This document shows positions 12,208 through 58,023 of a stretch of 64,000 nucleotides of DNA, one piece after another. The notes below the pieces were generated by a model. The model was not told the origin of the DNA and did no database searches. It saw nothing but the letters and a program-made list of their open reading frames with translations. The stretch comes from an uncultured Bacteroidales bacterium (GTDB taxonomy: Bacteria > Bacteroidota > Bacteroidia > Bacteroidales > Bacteroidaceae), in the NCBI GenBank assembly GCA_902787555.1, contig CADAGO010000001.1, positions 62,001-126,000 on the forward strand. The letters run 5' to 3'. Positions within the stretch are counted from its first letter, which is position 1, and each line of letters starts with the position of its first letter. A program made the translations under genes and the position numbers.

Positions 12208-12339
12208 CATACCCAATACCCTCAATACAAGACCCTTAAAGGTAAAAATCGTTACCATTAAGGAAAAAATTTGCAGCCCTTAATAGTAACAATTGTTACC
12301 CCTAAGGATTACAAAACAACTCCTTAGGGGTATAGAGAA
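12208..12339. repeat. 22-bp periodic array 1 (six units, alternating inverted pattern)
   Basis: Six 22-bp units fill the gap between moxR and the next minus-strand gene. Odd units share TTACCnnTAAGGA and even units share CCCTTAAnAGTAA, so units two apart (44 bp) are direct repeats and neighbours are near inverted repeats. As a result GTTACCATTAAGG (12251-12263) can pair with CCTTAATAGTAAC, and ACCCCTAAGGA (12298-12308) pairs perfectly with TCCTTAGGGGT (12321-12331). The last hairpin could end the minus-strand gene at 12387. The rest of the 12.0-12.39 kb gap is AT-rich with no credible gene. Confidence 0.7.
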
Positions 12340-12386
12340 CAAACACAATATTAAGTTGCGAAAATCGTCACTTAATTACGCCAGCA

Positions 12387-13481
12387 TTATTTCGAAGGAA
12401 AAGAAAGAGAACGGAACTTCATCGAGGGAATACCACCAGGCCTAAAGCCCCCTGCTTTCGCTCGTTCGTATGAGGGATCATAAAATGCTGCAGCCCACCC
12501 AGCTCCAGATTCTATACTATCCACATCTCCATTATCTGCCCAAATCCTCACATAAGTTGCATAGTCATATTTGAGTTTTGCCTTTGTCGCTTCATCATAA
12601 TAGAAAGTGACACTATAGAATTCCCGCCCCACATTTCGCTGAATAAAAGGTCGGTTAATCGTAGTGAAATACTTCTGTTTAGAAGACACTTTGGGTAAAA
12701 CACCGCCCTGTAGCCATTCAGGAGCGATATTCTCTGACACCTCTCTCGCCAGATTTACCAAATATTCGTTTCGCTCCTTCTCAGTCAACCTGTCCATAAC
12801 AAGGAATTGTTGAGTAATTGAATCGACGTTCTCTGTCAGTTTCGTAACTTGAGCACGATCCCCCTTTCGCACAGCCGCTTCCAACTTTGTAGCAAAGTCT
12901 GTAAAATCCTTTGCTCGTCCTACGCCTCCATCAAGAGTAGAACGTGCTCGCTTCCTTTGGGCTACGAACTCATAGTCTGTGCCATCAGAGATTTCGACAT
13001 TGACAATCTGACCATCGTGGTATTTAGGTACAGGTTCTTTGGCTGTCCAGATAGCCACATCCCACAGGTGTATCAGCCGAGTAGCCACATCATCCGAGAT
13101 GTCCATCGTGTGGCGCCTGATGATGGGTTCTTTATATTCCGACTTGTCATGAAGACGAAGCGCCCTTTCTACATTTAAGTCAATACTTAATGTCTGTTTG
13201 GCTCTTGATGAGATAACCTCAGACGCAACCAACTGATGAGCCACTGAATCGTAGGCAATCGAACACTCATTTAGATATGTGAAGATGCCAGCAAAACTTG
13301 CATTCTCAGGAACCATCAACCTGAACAGCTCCTGCTCATAAGTCAATGTATCAGGATTTAATTCCATCAGGTCGACAGGAATCAACCATTCCTGCGGGCC
13401 AATTGTCAACCACTTTTCCAAAGGTTGTGCCATCATATTGATTGGCAGAAATGTGAGTAACAAAACAACAATTCTCTTCAT
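12387..13481 (-). CDS. Secreted protein of unknown function
   Basis: The protein is 364 residues from the ATG at 13481, which places a normal signal peptide (MKRIVVLLLTFLPINMMAQ) at the N-terminus. The frame is open 60 codons further upstream, but those residues are not protein-like and lie over the probable promoter. The mature protein has a helical middle section rich in charged residues (KDFTDFATKLEAAVRKGDRA) and a beta-rich C-terminal half with YSVTFYYDEATKAKLKYDYA. I recognise no family, cysteines are few and no catalytic motif stands out. It is a periplasmic or surface protein by signal peptide only. It stands alone, flanked on both sides by 11/22-bp repeat arrays. Confidence 0.75.
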   Translation of the reverse strand: MKRIVVLLLTFLPINMMAQPLEKWLTIGPQEWLIPVDLMELNPDTLTYEQELFRLMVPENASFAGIFTYLNECSIAYDSVAHQLVASEVISSRAKQTLSIDLNVERALRLHDKSEYKEPIIRRHTMDISDDVATRLIHLWDVAIWTAKEPVPKYHDGQIVNVEISDGTDYEFVAQRKRARSTLDGGVGRAKDFTDFATKLEAAVRKGDRAQVTKLTENVDSITQQFLVMDRLTEKERNEYLVNLAREVSENIAPEWLQGGVLPKVSSKQKYFTTINRPFIQRNVGREFYSVTFYYDEATKAKLKYDYATYVRIWADNGDVDSIESGAGWAAAFYDPSYERAKAGGFRPGGIPSMKFRSLSFPSK

Positions 13482-13541
13482 ACCGTAATCATTTAGAGTT
13501 AATAAATCATTTAGAATAATAACCACTGCTTGGGTTGCGAC

Positions 13542-13549
13542 TGCAAATT
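13542..13549 (-). promoter_or_regulatory. -7 element upstream of the secreted unknown
   Basis: TAAATTTG on the minus strand fits TAnnTTTG and lies about 60 bases upstream of the ATG at 13481. No convincing -33 element is seen at 19-20 bases. A short inverted repeat GTACAC-GTA-GTGTAC at 13593-13607 lies upstream and could be an operator. Confidence 0.4.
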
Positions 13550-13677
13550 TACGGCAAAAAAATGTAACATCCTTGCAGATTTGTAACATTGAGTACACGT
13601 AGTGTACACATAACGAAAGGTTGTTCTGCCCACAATAACTCAAAGAACTCCGATACAGCACATTTCAGGCTGCATCC

Positions 13678-13765
13678 TGAATGAAAGGAGTTTGAAGCCG
13701 GAATTCAAGGCGAATTTACGCTGAATTCACCTCGAATTTACGTAGAATGTCAACTTCTTCCAGCG
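13678..13765. repeat. 11-bp periodic array 2 (eight units)
   Basis: From 13700 the units read GGAATTCAAGG, CGAATTTACGC, TGAATTCACCT, CGAATTTACGT and AGAATGTCAAC, each exactly 11 bp, with weaker units on both sides. Alternating units are most alike, so the array can also be read as 22-bp units. It lies downstream of the HU-LysM gene and upstream of the secreted unknown. No gene is visible in 13550-13800. Confidence 0.65.
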
Positions 13766-13801
13766 TAAGACAAGACACAAAGACAGACACTTTTCCTTAT
13801 A

Positions 13802-14596
13802 TTACGGCAGCTTCAGTTCTGTGCCTAATGGGATGAAAGTGGTGTCGGTCAGGTCATTGAGCTGCATGATGCGTGGAACGGAGTCGGTGGTGTTGTAGTG
13901 GAGAATGGAGATTGTAGTGAGTGACTCTCCTTTCTGGAAAACATGTACTTTGTAAGCAGGGGCATCGACTGGAGTCGAATAATTCAATGCTGACGGATTG
14001 CTGTTTGTTTGCGGTTCCGCTTGTGTAGAGGATTCTCCTACAGAGTTATTTGACAGTATACTCGCAAGGCAGATGGCTACGAATACAACTGCGAGTGCGA
14101 TGGATGCCCAAAGCCACCAGTGTGATTTCTTTGGTTCGGACTCGGCATTCGACGAAAGACTGGATGCGAGTGCTGCAGGTGTTGCTTGTGGTGTAGAGGG
14201 CAAAGCGGAAGATGGCGAGTCAGACGAAGTAGTGGACGGGGCTATAGGTGCTGCTGCTGATGCCTTACGTACAGGTTTCTTCTTGGGTACAGGAGCGGGT
14301 TCTATCAGTTCTGCTCCATTAATTACTGCATTGACTTTATCTTCCTCGACAAACTTCAGTTTATTGTGACCAGGAATCACGATGCGCTCTCCTGTATTCA
14401 CATTCACGCTGGCACGATCTGCCACCTTGATAGTCTTGAACGTACCAAGACCTTTCACCTTGACTGCTTCACCGCTGGTGACAGCATCGGCGAGTGTCTT
14501 GAAGAACGCATCGATGAAAGGTTGCACTTGTTGTGGGTCCCAACCACGTTGGAGCAGTGTTTCTGCCAACATCTGTGTAGTGATTTTCTTTGACAT
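13802..14596 (-). CDS. Membrane-anchored HU-LysM protein
   Basis: A 264-residue protein with an unusual domain order. Residues about 1-95 are an HU/IHF-type DNA-binding domain (ITTQMLAETLLQRGW, VKVKGLGTFKTIKV, and RIVIPGHNKLKFV at the beta arm). A Pro/Ala/Ser linker follows (about 96-158), then one membrane helix (WWLWASIALAVVFVAICLA, about 163-185), another Ser/Asn/Pro linker, and a C-terminal LysM-like domain (VHVFQKGESLTTISILHY, about 217-264). With the HU part in the cytoplasm, the LysM part would lie in the periplasm, where LysM binds peptidoglycan. This suggests a tether between nucleoid and cell wall, which is inference. A small HU-like gene lies 14 bases upstream and is probably co-transcribed. 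Confidence 0.82.
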   Translation of the reverse strand: MSKKITTQMLAETLLQRGWDPQQVQPFIDAFFKTLADAVTSGEAVKVKGLGTFKTIKVADRASVNVNTGERIVIPGHNKLKFVEEDKVNAVINGAELIEPAPVPKKKPVRKASAAAPIAPSTTSSDSPSSALPSTPQATPAALASSLSSNAESEPKKSHWWLWASIALAVVFVAICLASILSNNSVGESSTQAEPQTNSNPSALNYSTPVDAPAYKVHVFQKGESLTTISILHYNTTDSVPRIMQLNDLTDTTFIPLGTELKLP

Positions 14597-14610
14597 ATAT
14601 GCGTTCTTAT

Positions 14611-14895
14611 TTATTCTTTGGTTGACTTGACTTTATCTTTCATCTCGCTTGTAGGCTTGAAAGCGATGGTTTTGCTCTCAGGAACCTCTACATAGTCTTT
14701 TACGTTGGGGCTATACATGCGGCGAGCTGCCTTTGTCTTCAGTTCCAACGTACCTAAGTCGGGCAACACAATCGCGTTGTCCTGCTTGATTTCGTTCACC
14801 ATAACTGCTGTCAGCGCAGCCGCCAGTTGTTCTGCATCTTTCTGTGACATCGATGCAGTCTGAGCAATCGATTTGATAAAATCCTGATAGTTCAC
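14611..14895 (-). CDS. HU/IHF-like small DNA-binding protein
   Basis: A 94-residue protein with the HU fold pattern: two N-terminal helices (YQDFIKSIAQTASMSQKDAE, LAAALTAVMVNEIK), then a beta region with VLPDLGTLELKTKAARRMY and a final strand with TIAFKPTSEMK. The PDLGTLE segment replaces the usual G-x-G-x-F motif. It is probably a divergent nucleoid-associated or HU-like protein of the Bacteroidetes type. The gene lies immediately upstream of the HU-LysM gene (14 bases apart), so the two HU-fold proteins may form heterodimers, which would recruit this soluble subunit to the membrane. That is inference from adjacency only. Confidence 0.78.
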   Translation of the reverse strand: MNYQDFIKSIAQTASMSQKDAEQLAAALTAVMVNEIKQDNAIVLPDLGTLELKTKAARRMYSPNVKDYVEVPESKTIAFKPTSEMKDKVKSTKE

Positions 14896-14960
14896 AATCT
14901 TATTTACTATTTGACAATTTACTAATTACAAATCCACTAAGCTACTAAGCTATTAAGCTA

Positions 14961-16319
14961 TTAACCAATAACCTTTACCTTCCCATACAGGTCGAAATCA
15001 TCAGCATCTGTGATGGTTACCTTATAGAAGCATCCTCTGCGGAGCCTACCTGCACTCACAGGAATGAGCACTTCAGGATCGACTTCTGGCGAGTCGAACT
15101 CTGTACGGCCTACGTAGTACTCACCCTCTTTGCGGTCAATGATGACCTTGAGCGTCTGGCCCACTTTTGCTGCCTGCACCTCTGCAGAGATGTCTTGCTG
15201 GATGGCCATCAACTGACTGAGCCGTTCCTGTTTCACATCATCGGGGATTTCGTCCTTGAAATGACGTGCTGCATAGGTACCGTCTTCCTCTGAATAGGCA
15301 AAGGCGCCCATACGCTCGAAACGTGCCCAGCGCACAAACTCCTTCAGCTCCTCAAACTCCTGCTCGCCCTCACCTGGGAATCCGACCATCAAGGTGGTAC
15401 GCAGGTGGATGCCTGGAACTGCTTCACGCAGACGTGTAATCAGTTCGTAGGTCTGCTCCTTGTCAACATGACGTCTCATATTGGTCAGCACGTTGGTGCT
15501 GATGTGCTGCAGTGCGATATCGAGATAGCGGCACACATTGCGATGACGACGCATCACATCGAGCAGTTCCATCGGGAACTGATGGGGATAGGCATAATGC
15601 AGACGTATCCATTTCACACCCTTCACCTGCGCCATACGGTCGATGAGGGGTGCTATCATTCGTTTCTTGTAGAGGTCGATTCCATAGTAGGTCAACTCTT
15701 GTGCAATCACCTGAAACTCGCGCACACCCTGAGCAACCAGGTATTCCACCTCGGCAATGATGTCGTCGATCGGACGGCTGTGATGTCTGCCTGTGATGAT
15801 AGGAATGGCACAATAGGCACACTTGCGGTCGCACCCTTCGGATATCTTCACATAGGCATAATGGCGAGGGGTGGTCAGGACACGTTCATACCCCAAGCCT
15901 TCTCCTAAAGAACTTACATTATTTAATTCTTTAATTTTTACATTTTCCTTTGGGGTCTGGGAGGGAGAAAGCTCCCTTACAATCCCATCCCAGTCGAACT
16001 TGCCATAGAAACGGTCGACCTGCGGAATCTCCTTTCCGAGTTCCTTCATATAGCGTTCCGACAGGCATCCCATGACATAGAGGCGACGCAGACGGCCTTC
16101 CTCCTTAGCCTGACAGAACTCAAGAATCATATTGACAGACTCCTCCTTCGCATCGCCGATGAAGCCACAAGTATTGATAACGGCTATCTCACCCTGCGGA
16201 TGGGGAGAGTCATGCGTGACTCGATAGCCCAACGCCCGCAGCCGTGCCATCAGTCGTTCGGAATCTACCAGATTCTTCGAACAGCCCAACGTGATGATGT
16301 CAACCGTATTATGCCTCAT
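14961..16319 (-). CDS. rimO: Ribosomal protein S12 methylthiotransferase RimO
   Basis: A 452-residue radical-SAM enzyme that methylthiolates an aspartate of ribosomal protein S12. The N-terminal UPF0004 domain starts TVDIITLGCSKNLVDSERL and holds cluster cysteines in GCSKN, NTCGF and MGCLSERY. The radical SAM core has SEGCDRKCAYCAIP, the CX3CX2C cluster motif. A TRAM domain covers about the last 65 residues. RimO is told from MiaB by the GCSKNLVDSE start and by overall length. The gene is preceded by a 28-bp tandem repeat in its leader and follows ftsY on the same strand with 141 bases between. No frameshift or missing motif is seen. Confidence 0.95.
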   Translation of the reverse strand: MRHNTVDIITLGCSKNLVDSERLMARLRALGYRVTHDSPHPQGEIAVINTCGFIGDAKEESVNMILEFCQAKEEGRLRRLYVMGCLSERYMKELGKEIPQVDRFYGKFDWDGIVRELSPSQTPKENVKIKELNNVSSLGEGLGYERVLTTPRHYAYVKISEGCDRKCAYCAIPIITGRHHSRPIDDIIAEVEYLVAQGVREFQVIAQELTYYGIDLYKKRMIAPLIDRMAQVKGVKWIRLHYAYPHQFPMELLDVMRRHRNVCRYLDIALQHISTNVLTNMRRHVDKEQTYELITRLREAVPGIHLRTTLMVGFPGEGEQEFEELKEFVRWARFERMGAFAYSEEDGTYAARHFKDEIPDDVKQERLSQLMAIQQDISAEVQAAKVGQTLKVIIDRKEGEYYVGRTEFDSPEVDPEVLIPVSAGRLRRGCFYKVTITDADDFDLYGKVKVIG

Positions 16320-16325
16320 ATTTTT

Positions 16326-16423
16326 AGAAGTTATCGCTTCGCTCAGAAGTTATAGAAGTTATCGCTTCGCTCAGAAGTTATAGAAGTTACCGCTTACACT
16401 TAGAAGTTATCACTTCGCTTATG
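16326..16423. repeat. 28-bp tandem repeat in the rimO leader
   Basis: Two perfect 28-bp copies (16326-16353 and 16354-16381) built from AGAAGTTATCGCTTCGCTC plus AGAAGTTAT are followed by a third diverged copy and a partial fourth. The array ends seven bases from the rimO start, so it would be transcribed in the 5' leader if rimO is read from upstream. It is a candidate for copy-number variation. Confidence 0.8.
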
Positions 16424-16460
16424 ATACTCTGCTAAAGACTAAAAGTCTAGTGCCTAATGT

Positions 16461-17414
16461 CTATTCTCCAAAGAGAGAATTGACAAACTCCCTGCGGTTG
16501 AATGCCTGCAGGTCTTCCATTCCCTCACCCAGTCCGATATACTTTACAGGTATCTTGAACTGGTCGGAGATACCAATCACCACCCCACCCTTGGCTGTAC
16601 CATCGAGTTTGGTGATAGCCATCGCTGTCACCTCTGTGGCTGCAGTGAATTGACGTGCCTGCTCGAAAGCATTCTGACCGGTAGAACCGTCGAGCACCAG
16701 CAACACCTCATCGGGGGCTGTGTCGATATGTTTCCTCACAACATTACGTATCTTAGTCAGCTCGTTCATCAGTCCCACCTTGTTATGCAGACGTCCCGCA
16801 GTATCGATGAGCACCACATCGGCATCGTTGGCAATTGCCGAACTCACCGTGTCGTATGCCACAGAGGCAGGATCGCTCCCCATCTGCTGCTTCACAACCG
16901 GCACTCCCACACGCTCGCCCCAGATGCAAAGCTGCTCGACTGCAGCTGCACGGAACGTATCGGCTGCTCCTAGATAGACTTTCTTTCCGGCTTGCTTAAA
17001 CTGATATGCCAGCTTACCGATTGTTGTGGTCTTACCCACTCCGTTCACACCTACGACAAGTATCACATAGGGCTTATGGTCGGCAGGCAACTGGAAACCT
17101 TCGGTATCGTCTGTATTGTTCTCAGTGAGCAGGTTGGCAATCTCATCACGCAAGATACCATTCAGCTCTGCTGTATCAACATATTTATCACGAGCCACAC
17201 GTGCCTCGATCTTCTCGATAATCTTCAGGGTAGTATCCACGCCTACATCCGAGGTGACAAGCACCTCTTCGAGATTGTCCAAGACTTCATCATCGACTTT
17301 CGATTTTCCAGCCACAGCACGTGCTATCTTTCCAAACACGCTCTCTTTCGTCTTAGCCAATCCGCTGTCCAGCGTTTCCTTCTGCTTTTTTCCAAACCAA
17401 TTTAAGAATCCCAT
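16461..17414 (-). CDS. ftsY: Signal recognition particle receptor FtsY
   Basis: A 317-residue SRP GTPase without the long acidic N-terminal domain of E. coli FtsY. It begins MGFLNWFGKKQKETL, a short amphipathic membrane-targeting segment. The N domain is helical and the G domain has G1 GVNGVGKTTTIGKL, the insertion-box segment DTFRAAAVEQL, G3 DTAGR and G4 TKLDGTAKGG. FtsY docks the ribosome-SRP complex at the inner membrane for co-translational insertion. A canonical promoter (TTTG-N19-TATCTTTG) lies upstream at 17468-17498, giving a leader of about 50 bases. The next gene on the strand is rimO. Confidence 0.96.
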   Translation of the reverse strand: MGFLNWFGKKQKETLDSGLAKTKESVFGKIARAVAGKSKVDDEVLDNLEEVLVTSDVGVDTTLKIIEKIEARVARDKYVDTAELNGILRDEIANLLTENNTDDTEGFQLPADHKPYVILVVGVNGVGKTTTIGKLAYQFKQAGKKVYLGAADTFRAAAVEQLCIWGERVGVPVVKQQMGSDPASVAYDTVSSAIANDADVVLIDTAGRLHNKVGLMNELTKIRNVVRKHIDTAPDEVLLVLDGSTGQNAFEQARQFTAATEVTAMAITKLDGTAKGGVVIGISDQFKIPVKYIGLGEGMEDLQAFNRREFVNSLFGE

Positions 17415-17467
17415 AATATATTAATAATGTATAGTGTTAAAAGTTAATGATGAAATGATACCGAGTG

Positions 17468-17498
17468 CAAAGATAATCATTTTTCGCGAAACTCGCAA
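17468..17498 (-). promoter_or_regulatory. Promoter for ftsY
   Basis: The minus strand reads TTTG (17498-17495), a 19-base spacer, then TATCTTTG (17475-17468), matching the Bacteroidetes -33/-7 consensus. Transcription would begin near 17461 and the ftsY ATG is at 17414. Confidence 0.7.
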
Positions 17499-17499
17499 A

Positions 17500-17538
17500 G
17501 AATTAAACAAAATAAGTGTCCAACGCAGGACACTTATT
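17500..17538 (-). terminator. Terminator of the L28-L33-DUF4295 operon
   Basis: AATAAGTGTCC (17511-17521) and GGACACTTATT (17528-17538) form a perfect 11-bp stem with a six-base loop. On the minus strand the stem is followed by TTGTTTAATT. It lies 37 bases after the DUF4295 stop and just before the ftsY promoter. Confidence 0.75.
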
Positions 17539-17574
17539 TCCAATGATTATGAAACAAAAGTACAAATATAGCGT

Positions 17575-17727
17575 TTAGCTATTTGCATATGCCTTAGCTT
17601 CTTCGTTCAGAAGAACCTTTTCTTCAAACATATATGCGCCAGTCTTAGGAGACTTACACATCTTAATAACCTTTGTGTATGCGCGACCATCCTTTGATTG
17701 GAGAGTTGCGACCGCTTTCTTTGCCAT
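17575..17727 (-). CDS. DUF4295 small basic protein
   Basis: A 50-residue protein beginning MAKKAVATLQSKDGRAYTK and ending EEAKAYANS. This small, lysine-rich family is conserved in Bacteroidetes directly after the genes for ribosomal proteins L28 and L33, as here (11 bases after the L33 stop). The conserved location and basic composition suggest a ribosome-associated role, but the function is not established. The start is the ATG at 17727, and the same MAKKA opening also begins the neighbouring L33 protein. It is the last gene before the operon terminator. Confidence 0.85.
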   Translation of the reverse strand: MAKKAVATLQSKDGRAYTKVIKMCKSPKTGAYMFEEKVLLNEEAKAYANS

Positions 17728-17738
17728 ATTATATCAGT

Positions 17739-17927
17739 TTATTTGATTTCCTTATGAACAGTCATCTTCTTAAGGATGGGGTTATACTTCTTCAGTTCCA
17801 GACGGTCTGGAGTGTTCTTACGGTTCTTTGTTGTGATGTAACGTGATGTTCCTGGAAGACCGCTTTCCTTCATTTCAGTGCACTCAAGAATTACCTGCAC
17901 TCTGTTACCTTTAGCTTTCTTTGCCAT
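17739..17927 (-). CDS. rpmG: 50S ribosomal protein L33
   Basis: A 62-residue protein with the L33 pattern: [14 protein letters not shown], the [20 protein letters not shown] core and the [14 protein letters not shown] end. Only one of the four zinc-ribbon cysteines of the C+ form remains, so this is the zinc-independent (C-) type. L33 sits at the E site of the large ribosomal subunit. It lies 21 bases after rpmB and 11 bases before the DUF4295 gene, the standard Bacteroidetes trio. Confidence 0.96.
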
Positions 17928-17948
17928 GATTTCGTTTCTCCTTAATGA

Positions 17949-18209
17949 TTATGCAATTACTTGGATGTCTTTCCAGTTGCAATAGCCCTTATCTACTGCC
18001 TGACGTAATGCAGCATCAAGACCAATTCGGTTAATAATGCGAAGACCAGCAGCACTGACCTTCAAAACAATCCAACAATCTTCTTCTACATAGTAGAATT
18101 TCTTAGTAAACAAATTGACCTCAAAACGTCTCTTTGTTCTGCGAAGTGAGTGTGATACATTATTACCAATCACTGACTTCTTACCTGTGATTTGACAAAT
18201 TTTTGACAT
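17949..18209 (-). CDS. rpmB: 50S ribosomal protein L28
   Basis: An 86-residue protein. The N-terminus [20 protein letters not shown] and the [11 protein letters not shown] segment are typical of L28, an RNA-binding protein of the large subunit. It is the first gene of the L28-L33-DUF4295 operon. A promoter (TTG-N19-TAACTTTG) lies 57-86 bases upstream of the start codon. Length is normal and no motif is missing. Confidence 0.96.
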
Positions 18210-18265
18210 ATTTCTTTTTCTTAATTATTCTGCTATATTTCTTGTCGGGATTTTTAAACAGCGTG

Positions 18266-19267: not shown

Positions 19268-19290
19268 TTCCCTTTTAGTTATATGAACTA

Positions 19291-20262: not shown

Positions 20263-20307
20263 ATAATCTACTCTACCTCCTACTTACTTTTTCTTTACCT
20301 CTTGTTG

Positions 20308-20505
20308 ACTATATAGACATTAAGGTGACAATCTATAGAGGTCAACATAACACCGACATAAGGTCGACATAACACCAACATAAGGTCAACATAACACCAA
20401 CATAAGGTCAACATAAGGTTCACATAAGTTGAATATGAGGTACATTGGAGGTACCATAGACTTGGTATAGAGTTGGTATAGGGTTTGTATAGAGTTGATA
20501 TAGAC
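20308..20505. repeat. 11-bp periodic array 3 (up to 18 units)
   Basis: From 20341 the phase is strict: GTCAACATAAC, ACCGACATAAG, GTCGACATAAC, ACCAACATAAG, GTCAACATAAC, ACCAACATAAG, GTCAACATAAG, GTTCACATAAG, then TTGAATATGAG, GTACATTGGAG, GTACCATAGAC, TTGGTATAGAG, TTGGTATAGGG, TTTGTATAGAG and TTGATATAGAC, all 11 bp. Three weaker units precede. The unit drifts from one sequence to another without losing phase. Eleven is not a multiple of three, so this is not a coding repeat. A minus-strand promoter at 20579-20610 points into it. Confidence 0.85.
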
Positions 20506-23363: not shown

Positions 23364-23495
23364 ATTTGGTCATGCGCATGAACGGGCTGAATTATGCGCA
23401 TTAATCGATTGGATAATACGTATGAATGGAACAAATCATACGTATCATCGGAACGAATCATACGTATGAACGGAGCAAATCATACGTATGAATGG
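23364..23495. repeat. 22-bp periodic array 4 with palindromic cores (six units)
   Basis: Six 22-bp units lie between two convergent genes. The two on the left carry the palindrome ATGCGCAT or TGCGCA, and the four on the right carry ATACGTAT or TACGTA, always in the same place, followed by GAAYGG or CATCGG. The last three units are near-identical (AAATCATACGTATGAA type). The array ends four bases before the stop of the minus-strand anti-sigma-like gene. Confidence 0.85.
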
Positions 23496-26745: not shown

Positions 26746-26775
26746 CAAAGGTACGAAATAATTGACAATTGACAA
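26746..26775 (-). promoter_or_regulatory. Promoter of the BASS transporter gene
   Basis: TTG (26775-26773), 19 bases, TACCTTTG (26753-26746) on the minus strand. The start codon at 26725 lies about 20 bases downstream. The upstream side is a short ATTGACAATTG direct repeat tract. Confidence 0.65.
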
Positions 26776-26796
26776 TTGATAATTGACAATAATTAT

Positions 26797-30519: not shown

Positions 30520-30608
30520 GGATAATGTATAATTTATAATTCATAATGCATAATTGACCTTCAAAACTAAAAAAAGCAGGTTTTTGCAAAATAATTATGA
30601 TTTTTGCA

Positions 30609-30780: not shown

Positions 30781-30868
30781 TATGATTCAAGACGCATCTT
30801 CATAGACGTTTTCAGTAAACCTGACAAGGTCAATAGAAGAAAAGTGCAGAAATATTGAAATTATTGGT

Positions 30869-30992
30869 GTCCGCTAAAAGTTAGAAATCAATAAAGTATG
30901 TGTCCTCAGTGCCGATAAATAGGCGTTGTGGACACAAACTTCAAAAAATTAAGCCCCCTCCATACTTCATATCCTTCTGTTTTAGCGGACAG
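30869..30992. mobile_element. MITE-like element with 12-bp terminal inverted repeats
   Basis: TGTCCGCTAAAA at 30869-30880 and its exact complement TTTTAGCGGACA at 30981-30992 bound a 124-bp element. Both sides extend with TATTG/CAATA next to the repeats. Inside, AAAGTATG/CATACTTC and GTGTCC/GGACAC form nested inverted repeats, so the whole element folds back. No reading frame is present and no clear target duplication is visible. Confidence 0.6.
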
Positions 30993-31086
30993 TCAATATA
31001 AAAGTTTATAGTTTAGAGTGAACCACAAAGAGGTGAAGACAGCTATGAGTTTAGACTTTAGTTGTTATAAGTCCATTGTCTGAATG

Positions 31087-31240
31087 GCAAAGGACGGGCA
31101 GCTAATTCAAAAGGGAAAAGCAGCCGACTCAATCGGGAAGATGAGCCGGCAGAAAAGGGAAATTGCCTATAGTCATCCGGTCGGATGCCTATAGCCATCC
31201 AATTGGACGGCTAAAGGCGGATGACCGTCTGCCTTTAGCC
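31087..31240. repeat. 22-bp periodic array 5 (seven units; homologous to array 7)
   Basis: Seven consecutive 22-bp units. The third contains AATCGGGAAGATGAGCCG and later units contain TGCCTATAGCC or GCCTTTAGCC at the same offset. Each unit aligns in order with a unit of the complement of 57870-58023. A minus-strand promoter at 31295-31326 points into it. No gene is visible between the tRNA terminator and 31409. Confidence 0.85.
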
Positions 31241-31294
31241 GACTACCCTCGAACTTATAATAATGGAATGGGAATAGTATGCGGTATTTCACCA

Positions 31295-31326
31295 CAAAGA
31301 TACAAAAAGAATTCTCCTTTTCCAAA
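31295..31326 (-). promoter_or_regulatory. Canonical promoter reading into array 5
   Basis: The minus strand has TTTGGAA at 31326-31320 and TTTTTGTATCTTTG ending at 31295. Spacing from TTTG to the -7 box is exactly 20 bases. TTTGGAA and TTTTTGTATCTTTG are identical to the promoter of array 3. The upstream minus-strand gene ends at 31409 and no gene lies downstream. Confidence 0.6.
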
Positions 31327-31408
31327 TAATTCGTAAAGTTTTTTTACTCTTTTTTTAGTCTTTACAACCATGCAAAACATATATGTTGCTGATGCAAAGG
31401 TAACCTAA

Positions 31409-46056: not shown

Positions 46057-46248
46057 CAAAAAAAATCAGACATTGAACATCGAACATAGGCTTTTTTGCA
46101 AAAAGACATATAAAATAAGGTGCATGCAGGAGATTTTTCACCCAAAACAGGCTTTCTCCCAACCTATCAGCTATCAATTTTCAACTTGTAATTGGGGCTG
46201 CCTTCCTGCAGACATCTCGAAATCGTTCCGATAGTGTTTCGCAACCTT

Positions 46249-46314
46249 AAGGCCTTTCGGTAAGTGCTCGGTAGGTGCTCGGTAGGTGCTCGGTAGGTGC
46301 TCGGCACTTAGGCG
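46249..46314. repeat. 11-bp periodic array 6 (six units)
   Basis: AAGGCCTTTCG, GTAAGTGCTCG, then three identical GTAGGTGCTCG, then GCACTTAGGCG, all 11 bp in one phase. The first and last units are inverted relatives of parts of the centre, so the array can fold. It lies between the carbohydrate operon and the MalY-like gene, which diverge. The 45.96-46.47 kb gap has no gene. Confidence 0.8.
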
Positions 46315-46386
46315 GGAATTTCGGCTGTTGAAACCTCGGCCAATATGTGAAGATAGCGACTTTTTGTATATTTGTTGATGAGTTGT

Positions 46387-46418
46387 TTTGTCTTTTTAAG
46401 AAAAAAGTATTACCTTTG
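46387..46418 (+). promoter_or_regulatory. Promoter of the MalY/PatB gene
   Basis: TTTG (46387-46390), 20 bases, TACCTTTG (46411-46418). The leader to the ATG at 46466 would be about 42 bases. Confidence 0.75.
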
Positions 46419-46465
46419 CACTCAAAATAACCAATTGGCCATTAATCATCAAGAAACAAAACGGT

Positions 46466-47799: not shown

Positions 47800-47891
47800 C
47801 AAAATAATTCATAATACATCATGCATAATGCATAATTATTGCTTTTTTTCGAACCTTTTGCCCTTCAATTCTTGCTTTTTTGCATTTTTTC

Positions 47892-50124: not shown

Positions 50125-50131
50125 TTATCTC

Positions 50132-50896: not shown

Positions 50897-50922
50897 AATA
50901 TATAAAAAATGAAGTTATCATT

Positions 50923-52095: not shown

Positions 52096-52099
52096 AGCT

Positions 52100-53095
52100 A
52101 TGATACCTATAAGACCCATCAGAATAATACTCTTTATGAGCATACTGCTCCTTGCAGCCTGCACTTCAAATAAGAAGATAGCAAAAAGCAACCATGTGAC
52201 TACAGACAGTGCTCCCTACGAACTGCTGTTGATTGCTGACAAAGACTGGTTGAAGACTGCTGACGGAACCGTGGTCATGGAAATACTGAACTCCGATATC
52301 CCGGGGTTGCCACAACGAGAGAGCAACTTCAAGATTATAAGCATCAATCCTACAGCATTCGGCAAGACCTTTCAGGGTTTCGCTAACATCATCCAACTGG
52401 ATATCAACTCCAAGTATCCAGAAACATCGTTTAAAGTAGCACACGATATCTTTGCCCATCCGCAGACAATAATCTACCTTAATGCACCCGATGGTAAATC
52501 GATGGCAGAGATGGTCATTAAACGACAGTATCAGATTATCGACATGTTCAACAATGCAGAACTGAAACGTGAACGCGCCAGTTTGCGGAAGACCTATAGC
52601 GACAAGGTGAAACGCGAGGTTGAAAAGATGTTCAACTGTACCATCTATGCGCCAAAGGATATCAATGCCGTGAAAAAAGGGAAGAACTTCCTATGGTCAT
52701 CAACCAACCAGATCGACAACCGCCTCAACATCTGCGTGTATAGCTACCCCTACACACCTGAAGATTATTCTGAACAACGATTCATCGCTATCAGAGACTC
52801 TTTCATGCGTGAAAACATCAAAGGAAATTCCACCAACCAGTATATGAAGACCAATGCTGAGTATGTCTACATTCGCACTAAAACATTCGAAGGACGTACA
52901 GTCATTGAAGCACGCGGTTTGTGGGAGATGGAAAACGACATGATGGGCGGTCCGTTTGTATCGTATTCACAGGTTGATTCTGTAAATAACAGAGTGATTG
53001 TCGCAGAAGGATTTGTATATGCGCCTGAAAAGAGAAAACGTCTGTTCATCCGACAATTAGAAGCAGCTGTCCAAACACTCCAGTTCAACCAATGA
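52100..53095 (+). CDS. DUF4837 family lipoprotein
   Basis: A 331-residue lipoprotein. The N-terminus MIPIRPIRIILFMSILLLAAC has the lipobox LLAAC with Cys at about residue 21. The body resembles DUF4837, a Bacteroidetes family of unknown function (YELLLIADKDWLKTADGTVV, EARGLWEMENDMMGGPF). The first residues MIPIRPIRI are encoded by a 9-bp repeat (ACCTATAAG, ACCCATCAG) of a kind found elsewhere in the window, so the annotated start may include non-functional residues. A second Met (FMSILLLAAC, 13 residues on) would still leave a full lipoprotein signal. It follows the GH105-like gene by four bases. Confidence 0.78.
   Translation: MIPIRPIRIILFMSILLLAACTSNKKIAKSNHVTTDSAPYELLLIADKDWLKTADGTVVMEILNSDIPGLPQRESNFKIISINPTAFGKTFQGFANIIQLDINSKYPETSFKVAHDIFAHPQTIIYLNAPDGKSMAEMVIKRQYQIIDMFNNAELKRERASLRKTYSDKVKREVEKMFNCTIYAPKDINAVKKGKNFLWSSTNQIDNRLNICVYSYPYTPEDYSEQRFIAIRDSFMRENIKGNSTNQYMKTNAEYVYIRTKTFEGRTVIEARGLWEMENDMMGGPFVSYSQVDSVNNRVIVAEGFVYAPEKRKRLFIRQLEAAVQTLQFNQ
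52105..52122 (+). repeat. 9-bp repeat, copy a (two units)
   Basis: ACCTATAAG and ACCCATCAG in tandem, in frame at codons 2-7 of the DUF4837 lipoprotein. Related copies are at 53096, 56015, 57147 and 63261. Confidence 0.55.
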
Positions 53096-53139
53096 ACCCC
53101 ATAAGATCCATGATCCATTAAACCCATAAGACCCATAAG
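53096..53139 (+). repeat. 9-bp repeat, copy b (intergenic)
   Basis: The 48-base gap between the DUF4837 stop and the GH2 start is almost entirely ACCC(C)ATAAG-type units, including two perfect ACCCATAAG units at 53122-53139, and ends five bases from the GH2 start codon. Confidence 0.75.
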
Positions 53140-53143
53140 AACA

Positions 53144-56005
53144 ATGAGACTCTTCACAACCCTCTTCGCATGTTGCCTTGCAACAATACTGCAAGCCCAG
53201 ACCATCAACTTGGCTGGCACGTGGCAGTTTGCGATCGACCGTAATGACCGCGGTGTGGCAGAACAATGGTACAACCGTTCACTCGATGATACTATTGAAT
53301 TACCAGCATCTATGCCACAACGTCTCAAAGGAGATGATATCAGTGTGAACACACGTTGGGTAGGCAGCCTGTACGACAGTTCGTACTTCTTCAACCCCTA
53401 CATGGCAAAATACCGCAAACCGGGAAAGGATATGAAACTCACGTTCTTCCTCACACCAGATAAGCACTATGTTGGTGTAGCATGGTACCAACGTACAGTT
53501 ACACTTCAAAAGTACGACAAAAACAGCACATATACCCTATATTTAGAGCGTCCACATATCGAAACGACTCTTTTCGTGAACGGAAAGCGTGTCGGAATGC
53601 GTAATAGTCTGGTCGTTGCCCATCAATACGATGTGACCCCCTACCTGCATCAAGGGGAGAACGTCATTTCCATTCGTATCGACAACCGTCCAGAGACGGT
53701 CAATGTAGGACAAGACTCACATTCCATCACCGACCAGACCCAAGGAGACTGGAACGGTATTGTCGGACGGATAGAGTTGCAACAGACATCTGCAACACAT
53801 ATCACCGACCTGCAGGTCTTCCCCGATATTGACAAGCAAAATGCACTGGTAAAACTGCAAGTGGTCGGCAAACCAAAATCGAAGTACACCCTGACGCTGC
53901 ATGCTTATAGCAACGAAATAGAAGGTGGTTACTCTGAAGGTCGGATTGAAACGACCGTGACATTAACGAGCGACACAACCCTATTCGAGTACCCAGTCAA
54001 ACTCAAGAACATGAAACTATGGGATGAGTTCCACCCCTACACCTATATCCTCACAGCCCTGCTGTCGAAGAAGAAAAGCACGGTAGACTTGACCGGCACC
54101 ACGTTCGGTATGCGTAAGTTCGAGATTCGCGGTAAGATGTTCTACGTAAACGGACATGAAGTACAGTTGCGAGGTACGGTCGAGAATTGTGACTTCCCCC
54201 TCACGGGCTATGCACCGATGGATATCGCGTCATGGGAACGCGTGTTCCGTCGCTGTAAGGAATACGGTCTCAACCACATGCGTTTCCATTCTTATTGTCC
54301 TCCCGAGGCTGCATTCATTGCAGCCGATAAGGTTGGCTTTTATCTTCAGCCAGAGGGTCCGAGTTGGCCGAACCACGGAGTAGCACTCGGAAACGGTCGT
54401 CCCATCGACACTTATCTGATGGAAGAGACCATTCGGATGGCTAAAGATTATGGCAACCATCCTTCTTTCTGCATGTTGGCCTGCGGTAATGAACCAGCTG
54501 GACGTTGGGTGGATTGGGTCAGTAAGTTTGTAGACTATTGGAAAGCGACAGACACTCGTCGTGTATATACTGGTGCCTCTGTAGGCGGTAGCTGGCAATG
54601 GCAACCTAAGAGTCAATATCATGTCAAGGCAGGAGCAAGAGGCCTGCAATGGGCAAACCGCCGCCCAGACACCATGGATGACTATACCAGTACAATTGGC
54701 CAGGTAGCCGAACCTTATGTCAGCCACGAAACTGGTCAATGGTGTGTATTTCCGAATTTTGATGAAATCAGCAAATATACTGGTGTAAATAAGGCACGAA
54801 ACTTCGAAGTATTCCGTGATATCCTGAACGACAATGGAATGGGTAGTCGCGCCAAGCAATTTATGATGGCTGCAGGTAAATTGCAAGCCATCTGCTATAA
54901 GTACGAGATAGAACGCACCATGCGTACTCCGCAGTATGCGGGATTCCAACTCCTCTCTCTTAATGACTATTCTGGTCAAGGAACAGCCCTTGTTGGAGTG
55001 ACAGATGTGTTCTTCGACGATAAAGGTTATATGACAGCACCTGAGTTCCGTGCTTTTTGTTCACCGATAGTTCCTTTGGCAAGAATTCCTAAGTTCACCT
55101 ACACCAACAATGAGACCTTCCATGCCGACATATTGCTTAACCAATATGCCGACCACACCTTATTGAATATTAGCCCAACCTACACCATCACATCTGCGGG
55201 CAAAACTCTCCATGTAGGACGCTTCCCTGCACAAGATTGGAAAATCGGCAATAGTATCCCTATGGGCAGCATCGACTTCCCGCTCACGTCTATCAAAGAA
55301 GCACAAAAGCTGACCCTTACCATCAGCCTTCCAGGCACAGAGGCAGAAAACCATTGGGATTTCTGGGTCTATCCTGCCGAGGTAGAGGAAGAAGTAGGCA
55401 ATGTATGGATTACTGATCAGTTCGATGAGAAAGCACAGTCGGTACTTAAGAAAGGCGGCAAAGTACTCCTGACAGCCGCAGGAAAGATCAGCTACGGCAA
55501 GGATGTTGTACAGCAGTTCACTCCCGTCTTTTGGAACACGAGTTGGTTCAAGATGCGTCCCCCTCACACCACGGGTATTTTGGTAGAGAACACACATAGC
55601 ATCTTCGATTTGTTCCCAACTGATTATCATAGCGACCTACAATGGTGGGAGTTAGTGAACAAAGCCCAGGTAATGCAGTTCAGTGATTTCCCGAACGATT
55701 TCCAACCTCTCATCCAGAGCATCGACACATGGTTCCTCTCCCGTAAGATAGGCATGCTGTTTGAGGCCAACGTATTAGGAGGGCAATTGGTGATGACCAC
55801 AATGGATATCACAAACAATTTAGAACAGCGACATGCAGCACGTCAGATGCGAGTTTCCATCCTGCACTACATGAACTCCGAACAGTTCCACCCACGTTTC
55901 TCCATCGACCCACAACGTATTAGCGACCTCTATACAAAAGTTGCACCTCCTGTCAACTCGTTCACGAACGACTCACCTGATGAGCTTAAACCAAAAACCA
56001 ATTAA
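53144..56005 (+). CDS. GH2 family glycosidase
   Basis: A 953-residue secreted protein (signal peptide LFTTLFACCLATILQAQ). It has the GH2 layout: a sugar-binding jelly roll from about 20 with INLAGTWQFAIDRNDRG, an Ig-like domain, a TIM barrel with CKEYGLNHMRFHSYCPP, acid/base Glu in LACGNEPAGRWVDW, and nucleophile Glu in YVSHETGQWCVFPNF, then a long C-terminal region of about 300 residues. The sequence is unlike LacZ and unlike the 34139 GH2 protein, and it fits the broad GH2 groups that act on pectin side chains (beta-galactosidase, beta-glucuronidase or related). It follows the DUF4837 gene by 48 bases made of 9-bp repeats. Confidence 0.83.
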   Translation: MRLFTTLFACCLATILQAQTINLAGTWQFAIDRNDRGVAEQWYNRSLDDTIELPASMPQRLKGDDISVNTRWVGSLYDSSYFFNPYMAKYRKPGKDMKLTFFLTPDKHYVGVAWYQRTVTLQKYDKNSTYTLYLERPHIETTLFVNGKRVGMRNSLVVAHQYDVTPYLHQGENVISIRIDNRPETVNVGQDSHSITDQTQGDWNGIVGRIELQQTSATHITDLQVFPDIDKQNALVKLQVVGKPKSKYTLTLHAYSNEIEGGYSEGRIETTVTLTSDTTLFEYPVKLKNMKLWDEFHPYTYILTALLSKKKSTVDLTGTTFGMRKFEIRGKMFYVNGHEVQLRGTVENCDFPLTGYAPMDIASWERVFRRCKEYGLNHMRFHSYCPPEAAFIAADKVGFYLQPEGPSWPNHGVALGNGRPIDTYLMEETIRMAKDYGNHPSFCMLACGNEPAGRWVDWVSKFVDYWKATDTRRVYTGASVGGSWQWQPKSQYHVKAGARGLQWANRRPDTMDDYTSTIGQVAEPYVSHETGQWCVFPNFDEISKYTGVNKARNFEVFRDILNDNGMGSRAKQFMMAAGKLQAICYKYEIERTMRTPQYAGFQLLSLNDYSGQGTALVGVTDVFFDDKGYMTAPEFRAFCSPIVPLARIPKFTYTNNETFHADILLNQYADHTLLNISPTYTITSAGKTLHVGRFPAQDWKIGNSIPMGSIDFPLTSIKEAQKLTLTISLPGTEAENHWDFWVYPAEVEEEVGNVWITDQFDEKAQSVLKKGGKVLLTAAGKISYGKDVVQQFTPVFWNTSWFKMRPPHTTGILVENTHSIFDLFPTDYHSDLQWWELVNKAQVMQFSDFPNDFQPLIQSIDTWFLSRKIGMLFEANVLGGQLVMTTMDITNNLEQRHAARQMRVSILHYMNSEQFHPRFSIDPQRISDLYTKVAPPVNSFTNDSPDELKPKTN

Positions 56006-56014
56006 CTCTTTAGG

Positions 56015-56068
56015 GCCTATGAGTCCTAAAAGTCCTATGCGACCTATGAGTCTCATAGGACTCATCCT
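56015..56068 (+). repeat. 9-bp repeat, copy c (start of the GT-C gene)
   Basis: GCCTATGAG, TCCTAAAAG, TCCTATGCG, ACCTATGAG, then TCTCATAGG and ACTCATCCT as inverted units. The repeat spans the likely start codon and encodes MSPKSPMRPMSLIG. Confidence 0.8.
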
Positions 56069-57764
56069 TGTCTTTGAAGCCCTCATGGGTCTTCAAGGGT
56101 TTTGTATGGCCGATGAGGGGTGGTCTCTGACGGGGTATCAGCAAATCTTTCATGAGCCAAGCAGTGTACAGTATATGTTCCTGTTTTACAACAAATTGGT
56201 AATTGGCGGTCTATGGGAATGGTTGTTTGGTGGATTAGGCATCTATGGCTTCCGCCTGCTGAACATCCTCTTAATGCTAGCCACATGGTTCATCATTTAT
56301 CGATTGATGCGCAACTACATCCACCCTTACACGATAGTAATAGGAGCCATCCTCGTCACGATGGCACACAACTATGGCGTGATGGTCTTCGATCACAGTA
56401 GCGTGACAGTACTATTGTCTGTCTCAGCAGCTTACTTTCTATTTCAGTCACTTTGCAAAGGTTCCGCACTTCATATCTATATCGCAGGAATTTTATTAGC
56501 GGTCAATATCTTCTCACGCATTCCCAACATCTCCCAACTCACTTTGTTGACGCTCCTAATTCCTTATTATATATATACAAAGAAAATGATGAAAACCCTT
56601 CAATTGCTTGGGGGTGCGTTATTGGGAGTAATAACAGGTATCGCGTTTGAATTTGGACTGATGTATTGCCTGGACCACCTACATTTATTCATCGAAAACC
56701 TTAGCACAGGGATGTCAGCAGCAACCTCATCCGACAGTTCTCATAGTCTGTCCACAATGCTGCCATCCTATTTCGACTCCTATCTACAGATTCTGAAGGA
56801 CATGCTGAAGATTGCCATCCTACCCACATTAGCGCTGCTGGTCGGAAACCTTCTAAAGCAATCAGGTTTGCGCAAGGGGCTTATCCTTTTCTTTGCGTTG
56901 GCACAGGTTGCCATTCTCATTTACTTCTTCGACAACATGCTGTTCCTCTATGCCTTTATCAGCATCATCCTCATCCCCTCGCTCTACTTCCTTCGCAAGC
57001 AACCCGAACAAATCTATCTTATACTGATTGCCCTCCTGATACTGTATCTTCTCCCCTACGGAAGTGATTACGGTATCAACAACATGGGCGAAAATGCCAT
57101 TTGGCTCGCTACCCCTCTTGCTGTAGGCTTAGCGCATAAAGGCATAACCTATAAGACCTATAAGTCCTATACGACTTATCAAAACCATTCACCCTACAAG
57201 CCTTATATGGTCTCCATCATCACAACAGCCATGCTGTCCTTCATGATAGTGTTTTTCGTTTGCAACAGTTGGTTTATGCTCCACAATGCCTATTTCGATG
57301 AGGGTGCCCGATGGGAGAAACGCTATAGGGTCGATCATCCCTTAGCAAACACCTTCACGAATCAGGACTATGCTCAATCCACAAATACTATCCTGACGGA
57401 ATTGAAGAAATATGTACACCCCGATGATTATCTCTTCTGCTTCCAAAGTCGGCCTATGCTACATTACCTCACACATACCCGTCCATACATGTACAATCCA
57501 TGGCCTTGGTCGTTCGATACCCCTTCCATGAAACTCCATTTACAACGAGCGGAAGCACGAGGAGGCAAACTCCCTGTGGTTGTACGTGAGAAGTGTCAGC
57601 TTATCAACTTCGTTCTACCCGACCCCAACTGGAATCAGACCAACGCCGAAGATGATTTCTTCCATAAGAATGCCAAGGTTAGGCTGATACAGGGTTTTAT
57701 TGAACACCATCACTACCAAGTAGTGTGGGAATCAGATGAGTATCAGATCCTGACCGCGAACTAA
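56019..57764 (+). CDS. Polytopic membrane protein, GT-C glycosyltransferase-like
   Basis: About 581 residues with some 12-13 predicted membrane helices. Near the N-terminus MADEGWSLTGYQ carries an acidic DE pair after the first helix, the position and type of the catalytic acidic motif in GT-C enzymes (ArnT, Pmt-type), and the large C-terminal soluble part (from about 430) is typical of that fold. It would use a lipid-linked sugar donor and face the periplasm. The start is uncertain: the frame is open 26 codons earlier inside the GH2 gene, while ATG at 56019, 56034 or 56043 all lie in a 9-bp repeat. Another such repeat (57147-57209) encodes ITYKTYKSYTTYQNH in the interior. Function is inferred from topology only. 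Confidence 0.6.
   Translation: MSPKSPMRPMSLIGLILVFEALMGLQGFCMADEGWSLTGYQQIFHEPSSVQYMFLFYNKLVIGGLWEWLFGGLGIYGFRLLNILLMLATWFIIYRLMRNYIHPYTIVIGAILVTMAHNYGVMVFDHSSVTVLLSVSAAYFLFQSLCKGSALHIYIAGILLAVNIFSRIPNISQLTLLTLLIPYYIYTKKMMKTLQLLGGALLGVITGIAFEFGLMYCLDHLHLFIENLSTGMSAATSSDSSHSLSTMLPSYFDSYLQILKDMLKIAILPTLALLVGNLLKQSGLRKGLILFFALAQVAILIYFFDNMLFLYAFISIILIPSLYFLRKQPEQIYLILIALLILYLLPYGSDYGINNMGENAIWLATPLAVGLAHKGITYKTYKSYTTYQNHSPYKPYMVSIITTAMLSFMIVFFVCNSWFMLHNAYFDEGARWEKRYRVDHPLANTFTNQDYAQSTNTILTELKKYVHPDDYLFCFQSRPMLHYLTHTRPYMYNPWPWSFDTPSMKLHLQRAEARGGKLPVVVREKCQLINFVLPDPNWNQTNAEDDFFHKNAKVRLIQGFIEHHHYQVVWESDEYQILTAN
57147..57209 (+). repeat. 9-bp repeat, copy d (inside the GT-C gene)
   Basis: Seven in-frame 9-bp units starting ACCTATAAG, ACCTATAAG, TCCTATACG and ACTTATCAA and ending CCTTATATG. 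Each adds three codons, giving the TYK TYK SYT TYQ pattern in a loop between membrane helices. It resembles the leader copies at 52105, 53096 and 63261. Confidence 0.8.
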
Positions 57765-57815
57765 TCTGAATTCATAGAAATCAAGTATTATATTTTAGTG
57801 GTCTGCATATATCTA

Positions 57816-57839
57816 TACAGAGATATTAATATCTCTGTA
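57816..57839. terminator. 24-bp perfect palindrome between convergent genes
   Basis: TACAGAGATATT and AATATCTCTGTA form a perfect 24-bp palindrome, with TCTGC and GCAGA as outer arms. It lies 52 bases after the GT-C gene stop and could end transcription in that direction, although no T tract follows. Confidence 0.5.
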
Positions 57840-57869
57840 AGCAGAACACGCTATGATTTGAAGTAATTT

Positions 57870-58023
57870 GGCTGTAGGCGCACGACCATTTGCCTTTAGG
57901 CGAACGGTCATTCGCCCTGAGGCAAACAATAGTACGCCTTTAGGCAAAGTCCTTTCTCTATCGGCTCATCCTCCCGATTGAATCTACTGATTGTCCCTTT
58001 TAAATTAGCTAATGCTCCCCACA
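57870..58023. repeat. 22-bp periodic array 7 (seven units; inverted copy of array 5)
   Basis: Seven 22-bp units. GCCTTTAGGC, GCCCTGAGGC and GCCTTTAGGC recur at 22-bp steps from 57892, and the complement contains AATCGGGAGGATGAGCCG, which differs by one base from array 5. The array ends 27 bases before the stop of the GT2 gene, in a convergent gap with no gene. Confidence 0.85.

What the first reader, a model, noticed from the sequence alone, without database searches (positions are those of the whole stretch)
12208..58023. A family of intergenic arrays with a strict 11/22-bp period and changing unit sequence
Seven gaps hold arrays at 12208-12339, 13678-13765, 20308-20505, 23364-23495, 31087-31240, 46249-46314 and 57870-58023. 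All have a phase of exactly 11 or 22 bp, about one or two helical turns, but the units differ in sequence between arrays, and within array 3 the unit drifts gradually while the phase is kept. None lies in a gene and none has spacers like CRISPR. What is conserved is the period, which points to a mechanism that copies or selects for helical phase, such as a protein that binds one DNA face, or slippage tied to it. I do not recall a described family of this kind, but cannot exclude one.
Basis: partly seen in the sequence, partly recalled or inferred. Interest (0 to 1): 0.85.

Follow-up and report, generated by a model that had tools for sequence, protein, structure and literature searches.

The report
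Intergenic palindrome arrays at 22-bp pitch
Between the genes of this rumen-type Bacteroidales bacterium lie many short tandem repeats whose letters differ from array to array but which share a 22-letter unit, often a palindrome; at least one kind sits on a small mobile element, so the shared unit length is real, though arrays of constant unit size and varying sequence were already described in other bacteria.

Summary
The seven arrays exist, and in 464 kb of the same genome intergenic DNA shows autocorrelation peaks at 22, 44 and 11 bp that coding DNA lacks. In six genomes 69 period-22 arrays fall into 40 sequence-unrelated groups, against 1, 10 and 7 groups at 20, 21 and 23. Sister species differ by exactly one 22-bp unit (array 4) or two 11-bp units (array 3). 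(1) Many 22-bp arrays are tandem palindromes: 20 of 46 independent groups beat a column-permutation null at p<0.05, against 0 of 17 at 11 bp; arrays 3 and 6 are another type. (2) Arrays 5 and 7 belong to one dispersed family, a MITE: 7 two-ended copies, 3 with perfect 9-bp target duplications. (3) Wobble mismatches show no strand bias, so the symmetry looks DNA-level. Constant-size, variable-sequence 20-23-nt repeats are in print (PMC8161180), as is a MITE-borne 23-nt minisatellite of Porphyromonas (PMC4596501). I rate it a new variant of a known kind. What sets the 22-bp pitch remains open.

The parts
12208..12339 (.). Array 1: tandem palindromes at 22 bp, family C (CCCTTAAGGG / GTAACAATTGTTAC)
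   Evidence: lag 22 z 5.3; dyad z 8.5; related arrays; family C gives 30 matches in G000, 21 in G010, 44 in G006
13678..13765 (.). Array 2: 22/11-bp array (GAATTCA..CGAATTTACG); dyad signal moderate, not in the permutation test
   Evidence: lag 22 z 5.0, lag 11 z 4.4; dyad z 5.9 against dinucleotide shuffles
20308..20505 (.). Array 3: 11-bp array, unit sequence drifts along it; G010 has two more units of exactly 11 bp
   Evidence: lag 22 z 10.7, lag 11 z 9.7; alignment with L076; dyad z 6.0 against dinucleotide shuffles but p 0.33 under column permutation for its left part 20307-20415
23364..23495 (.). Array 4: tandem palindromes CATACGTATG / CATGCGCATG at exactly 22 bp, family B
   Evidence: lag 22 z 10.4; dyad z 14.5; one-unit indel between G010 and G006; spacing exactly 22
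30862..31345 (-). MITE family A copy that carries array 5; one end not recognisable here, both ends present in the G010 ortholog L045 (566 bp)
30862..30879 (+). 18-bp terminal inverted repeat TATTGGTGTCCGCTAAAA of the MITE
31087..31240 (-). Array 5: 22-bp palindromic array inside the MITE (family A)
   Evidence: lag 22 z 7.3; dyad z 5.9; family alignment
31295..31326 (-). Promoter-like pair TTTG (31323-31326) and TATCTTTG (31295-31302) pointing into array 5; conserved in most family A copies aligned. The Bacteroidales -33/-7 reading is recalled
   Evidence: sequence, alignment of 18 loci
46249..46314 (.). Array 6: 11-bp array TCGGTAGGTGC, no dyad symmetry beyond the permutation null
   Evidence: lag 11 z 7.2; TRF; p 0.42
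57870..58023 (+). Array 7: family A array in opposite orientation to array 5, without recognisable MITE ends; the 285-bp intergenic region around it is absent at the orthologous site of G010
   Evidence: lag 22 z 7.5; dyad z 9.1
60332..60403 (.).

Best explanation
The arrays are non-coding minisatellites, many of them made of tandem palindromes about 22 bp long, spread between genes by small dispersed elements. Shown: family A is a MITE (18-bp inverted ends, 9-bp target duplications) with a promoter-like leader, an array and a tail; families B and C are also dispersed. Shown: orthologous arrays differ by whole units of 11 or 22 bp. Inferred: they grow by slippage or unequal exchange, helped by hairpins that each palindromic unit can form while single-stranded. 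Such hairpins would make a near-fixed unit the favoured step and, through template switching, keep both halves complementary. On this view the constant pitch is set mostly by how units are copied, not by one binding protein.
For: Whole-unit differences between sister species: two 11-bp units in array 3; exactly one 22-bp unit in array 4, the array otherwise identical, G010 against G006. Dyad symmetry with two dyads per unit: 20 of 46 independent groups at p<0.05 and 15 at p<0.01 under column permutation. Both halves change together: ATGCGCAT and ATACGTAT units in orthologous array 4; local complementary pairs 2342 against 2286 +/- 26 permuted, 14 of 1000 permutations as high. No wobble strand bias, chi2 29 on 26 arrays. 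Mobility: family A has 27 distinct places (33 matches) in G000 but 2 matches in G010; perfect 9-bp duplications flank 3 of 7 two-ended copies and a 7-bp one flanks a fourth; array 7 present in G000, absent in G010. No clear placement relative to genes: 12 co-oriented, 10 convergent, 8 divergent with arrays; 52, 17, 20 without.
Against: Hairpin slippage alone does not say why 22 rather than 18 or 26. 26 of 46 groups show no significant symmetry, and 11-bp arrays show none (0 of 17); some symmetry excess also appears at 21, 23, 24, 28 and 33 bp. The covariation excess is small. Mobile ends were found for family A only, and not for array 7 itself. No transposase was recognised, by eye only, in seven of the 16 end-repeat places. 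Family C is repeated in three species of the genus and weakly in G158, which could mean a maintained role.
Confidence: 0.5

Rival explanations
1. The arrays are tracks for a symmetric DNA-binding protein that polymerises along DNA with one dimer per 11 bp and reads dyad symmetry or bendability more than exact letters, for nucleoid packing or segregation. Selection then holds the pitch.
For: Constant pitch over 40 unrelated groups; two dyads per 22 bp and no RNA-strand signature; the 15 adjacent family B pairs found in G000, G010 and G006 are all exactly 22 apart although gaps of 4-32 were allowed. Protein polymerisation is one of the roles proposed for Bacillus repeats (PMC8161180).
Against: No motif shared by the families was found; central dinucleotides vary. 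Lag 22 is absent in same-genus G011 (z 0.5) and weak in G007 (z 2.3). Dissimilar palindromes are not spaced at 22. 22 bp is slightly off 2 x 10.5.
Confidence: 0.25
2. The arrays act as RNA: transcribed hairpin chains that regulate or stabilise transcripts.
For: Family A has a conserved promoter-like pair pointing into the array; many arrays fold better than shuffles.
Against: G.T and A.C mismatches are balanced, 300 against 270, without array-wise bias; promoter motifs within 250 bp of 100 arrays point in 47 times and away 59 times; Rfam at gathering threshold finds only two tRNAs in the window. Tandem palindromes fold well on either strand whatever their function.
Confidence: 0.1
3. Tandem intrinsic terminators (suggested by hairpin plus T-run in family C).
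For: Sequence of family C units; two copies lie right after tRNA genes.
Against: In T-run orientation the upstream gene is co-directed in only 11 of 30 loci examined, two of which are the same place.
Confidence: 0.04
4. One reading: an unknown mechanism copies or selects helical phase itself, independently of unit sequence.
For: Period excess; drift of units in array 3 at constant phase.
Against: Drifted units still resemble their neighbours and are explained by duplication plus mutation; 22 dominates over 21, the B-DNA value.
Confidence: 0.08

Closest known systems
Constant-size, variable-sequence bacterial tandem repeats (Subirana and Messeguer; PMC8161180: abstract, introduction, section 3.3, discussion and tables read; their 2020 J Bacteriol paper is not held and is known here only through this one and a citation)
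   Same: Non-coding, several unrelated families per species with one repeat size, about two helical turns, largely species-specific
   Different: There 20-21 nt (20-23 across groups) or 52 nt, described in detail for Bacillus; the word beginnings palindrom and symmetr do not occur in that paper. Here 22 bp, often dyad-symmetric, partly on a MITE, in Bacteroidales
BrickBuilt MITE of Porphyromonas gingivalis (PMC4596501: abstract and sections 5, 7 part 1 and 8 read)
   Same: Bacteroidales, intergenic, tandem minisatellite between leader and tail, inverted ends, promoter elements, varying unit number, predicted stem loops
   Different: 23-nt unit of one sequence family, ends GAGACCTTTGCA-like, inconsistent target duplications; family A here has 22-bp units, ends TATTGSTGTCCGSTAAAA and 9-bp duplications
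22-, 23- and 41-nt direct repeats of P. gingivalis W83 (mentioned in PMC4596501)
   Same: Similar unit sizes in the same order of bacteria
   Different: No sequence or symmetry given in what I read
10-11 bp A-tract periodicity of bacterial genomes (PMC3940949, passages read)
   Same: Helical-scale period
   Different: A periodic spacing of A-tracts across the genome, not discrete arrays

Membership tests
Constant-size, variable-sequence tandem repeats | One repeat size across several unrelated families in a genome | tested here: met
   G000: 33 arrays in 20 independent groups at 22 bp, 1 group each at 20 and 23, 5 at 21, 3 at 24 (threshold 27/44). At 24/44 the contrast is smaller: 23 groups at 22, 3 at 20, 11 at 21, 3 at 23, 8 at 24
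Constant-size, variable-sequence tandem repeats | Size 20-21 or 52 nt (20-23 across bacterial groups) | tested here: inconclusive
   22 lies in the wider range given in the paper but not at its modal 20-21
Constant-size, variable-sequence tandem repeats | Non-coding | tested here: met
   Arrays were sampled in intergenic regions; coding DNA is flat at lag 22. Gene calls were ORF-based
MITE (family A only) | Terminal inverted repeats | tested here: met
   18-bp ends, up to 3 mismatches allowed, in 7 two-ended copies, 6 in G000 and 1 in G010
MITE (family A only) | Target-site duplication | tested here: met
   Perfect 9 bp in 3 of 7 and 7 bp in 1 of 7; none found in 3 of 7
MITE (family A only) | No transposase; a parent IS with the same ends | tested here: inconclusive
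   No transposase recognised by eye from the first 70 residues of the four longest ORFs at 7 of 16 end-repeat places; no family search was run on them; parent IS not found; genome 82% complete
BrickBuilt | 23-nt unit and GAGACCTTTGCA-type ends | tested here: not met
   22-bp unit, ends TATTGSTGTCCGSTAAAA; unit sequences were not compared
CRISPR | Identical repeats with unique spacers | tested here: not met
   Head-to-tail imperfect units without unique spacers; no dedicated CRISPR tool was run
Intrinsic terminators | Placed downstream of co-directed genes | tested here: not met
   11 of 30 family C loci examined

The most novel reading that the evidence does not exclude
A dyad-reading, sequence-tolerant DNA-binding system in Bacteroidaceae uses any palindromic 22-bp lattice, one dimer per 11 bp, as a chromosome-organising or segregation track, and mobile elements supply and spread the lattices; the recurrent constant repeat size in distant bacteria would be the mark of such proteins.
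Probability: 0.15. Interest if true: 0.85.

Novelty: new variant of a known kind. Interest (0 to 1): 0.55.

Why it matters
Constant-size repeats of varying sequence have been called enigmatic by their describers. This genus adds what may be a missing clue, dyad symmetry with two dyads per unit and no RNA-strand signature. It also adds a vehicle (a MITE with 9-bp target duplications) and natural one-unit differences between sister species. That makes the choice between copying mechanism and protein lattice testable in culturable Bacteroidales.

Tried and rejected
Terminator reading of family C: rejected on gene orientation. RNA-structure reading: no wobble bias and promoter motifs not directed into arrays. 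Ruler independent of tandem duplication: dissimilar palindromes are not enriched at 22 bp; the excess at 11 and 33 bp (46 against 8.1, 27 against 7.6) follows algebraically from period 22 plus one dyad. A stricter first version of that test had too few palindromes.

Results against, or limits. Five genomes of other families in the order (G013, G014, G016, G018, G019) show no clear peak, largest lag-22 z 2.5, from 36-80 kb each. The 51 more distant of 80 named loci show no excess (z -3.3), though 6 lag-22 clusters occur there. Same-genus G011 has no lag-22 peak (z 0.5), and G007 peaks at 8 and 11, with z 2.3 at 22; in G010 and G006 lag 21 is as high as lag 22 (6.0 and 5.3 each), partly from 7-bp repeats. 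At the looser threshold 24/44 the six genomes give 45 groups at 22 against 9, 26, 21 and 13 at 20, 21, 23 and 24. In one search, 26 of 46 groups lack significant symmetry; other periods were drawn from a wider set of loci than period 22 and some with threshold 25 instead of 26, and 24, 28 and 33 bp show 4 of 18, 3 of 11 and 5 of 16. TSD absent in 3 of 7 two-ended MITE copies.

Rows dropped: the family A alignment was shown for 18 of 30 loci; one search used only arrays of 90 bp or more; only the 26 of those with dyad z of 6 or more; one search examined the 30 loci returned, not all 99 matches. Gene calls in scripts were longest-ORF heuristics.
Full report
Setting. The window is bases 62001-126000 of contig 1 of a 2.69-Mb, 55-contig, 82%-complete genome. 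The nearest named relatives by a MoxR-type protein are the assemblies RUG418 (Prevotellaceae, 90%) and RGIG6789 (Bacteroidaceae, sheep rumen, 91%).

The observation. All seven arrays are real. Intergenic autocorrelation over 464 kb peaks at 22 (z 17.8), 44 (7.5) and 11 (7.3), with separate peaks at 7 and 8 bp; coding DNA shows only its 3-bp pattern. At a strict threshold (27 of 44 matches) six genomes hold 69 lag-22 arrays in 40 groups unrelated by BLAST; at lags 20, 21, 23 and 24 there are 1, 10, 7 and 8 groups (21 and 24 include multiples of 7- and 8-bp repeats). At 24 of 44 the figures are 45 against 9, 26, 21 and 13. So the shared pitch is not caused by copies of one family.

Spread. Same-genus genomes G010, G006 and G004 have the lag-22 peak (z 6.0, 5.3, 8.0), with lag 21 equally high in the first two; G007 peaks at 8 and 11 and G011 has none. 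Outside the genus it occurs in G158 (z 6.1) and in G026 (3.9), not clearly in G037 or G025. Among 80 named loci the nearest 29 show it (z 7.1), the other 51 do not. Of nine lag-22 arrays printed from named relatives, L130, L132, L140 and L150 show plain palindromes of other sequences; 8 of the 9 named groups pass the permutation test at 0.05.

Symmetry. In many 22-bp arrays the reverse complement lies in register. With columns of the unit permuted, which keeps period and drift but destroys symmetry, 20 of 46 independent groups are significant at 0.05 and 15 at 0.01. Periods 21 and 23 show 6 of 21 and 5 of 15; 24, 28 and 33 show 4 of 18, 3 of 11 and 5 of 16; 20, 18 and 16 show 2 of 14, 3 of 20 and 2 of 16; 11 shows 0 of 17. 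Arrays 3 and 6 (p 0.33 and 0.42) are therefore a separate, non-symmetric 11-bp type, although array 3 had dyad z 6.0 against plain shuffles. Mismatched pairs are about as often A.C as G.T (270 against 300) and no array-wise bias appears on 26 arrays, which argues against selection on one RNA strand.

Change between species. Array 3 in G010 carries two extra units of exactly 11 bp. Array 4 is identical in G010 and G006 apart from one 22-bp unit; in G000 the same locus has more units with ACGT and fewer with GCGC at the palindrome centre, both halves changed. Array 5 is nearly unchanged in G010, with a one-base gap. A family B array on contig 2 is unchanged between G000 and G010 but for one base at its edge. 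In the pattern scan of 17 genomes the 15 adjacent ATACGTAT pairs in G000, G010 and G006 are all 22 bp apart although gaps of 4-32 were allowed; one G004 pair is 39 apart, and the backwards control matched once in G010. For GCCTTTAGGC pairs in G000, 13 of 14 are 22 apart; 2 of 201 genomes of the family had such pairs.

Mobility. Family A (arrays 5 and 7) has 27 distinct places (33 matches) in G000, 2 matches in G010, and none in G006, G003, G011, G012 at E 0.001; a relative occurs in another genus, G158. Seven two-ended copies, one of them in G010, are 339-596 bp long with ends TATTGSTGTCCGSTAAAA. Three have perfect 9-bp duplications directly outside the ends, a fourth 7 bp, three none. Inside lie a promoter-like pair, a leader, the array and a tail. 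Array 7 has no such ends within 3 mismatches; its 285-bp intergenic region is missing from G010, where the flanking genes align with a 2-bp gap. Which state is older is unknown. The stretch with arrays 1 and 2 did not align in RUG418 (L128) and RGIG6789 (L129). Family C, about 65-85 bp, is dispersed: 30 matches in G000, 21 in G010, 44 in G006, 4 in G158; some are both strands of one place.

Placement. Of 30 array-bearing intergenic regions of 100 bp or more in G000, 12 are co-oriented, 10 convergent, 8 divergent; without arrays 52, 17 and 20 of 89. Array regions are longer (median 444 against 166 bp). Promoter motifs within 250 bp of 100 arrays point in 47 times and away 59 times.

Mechanism. 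Shown: dispersal, whole-unit differences, DNA-level symmetry in many arrays. Inferred: slippage helped by hairpins that also keep halves complementary. Unexplained: why 22. A protein lattice remains the main rival.

Literature. PMC8161180 (abstract, introduction, section 3.3, discussion and tables read) describes bacterial repeats of constant size and variable sequence and offers protein polymerisation or small RNA as roles. PMC4596501 (abstract and sections 5, 7 part 1 and 8) describes BrickBuilt. Of PMC6749651 I saw outline, abstract and passages; of PMC4060949, PMC3940949, PMC5771137 and PMC8625621 passages only. Searches in whose listings I saw no paper on 22-bp palindromic arrays in Prevotella or relatives; the library lacks most subscription papers.

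Noticed in passing
window 26760-26790, 30529-30555, 47804-47836, 59037-59069: Intergenic 7- and 8-bp tandem repeats (AATTGAC, ATAATTC, ATAATGC, GTTATTCC) form a second strong class in this genome; lag 7 is also the top lag (z 8.7) in the 51 more distant named loci.
   Followed up: partly
window 13802-14596: HU/IHF-type DNA-binding domain with a LysM match just below Pfam's cut-off, next to array 2; a PF00216 DNA-binding gene also neighbours BrickBuilt_14 in P. gingivalis. May be coincidence.
   Followed up: no
G010 L075:162-9647 against window 46142-46459: G010 carries about 9.5 kb in the place of the intergenic region that holds array 6 in the window, with a family C array near one side.
   Followed up: no
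L257 (G006): Repeated tRNA-like stretches with a run of N upstream of a family C array; the array follows a hairpin and T-run directly.
   Followed up: no
window 6108-6319: Tandem repeats of 15, 18, 24 and 30 bp inside a 284-aa ORF, multiples of three, so probably a protein repeat.
   Followed up: no
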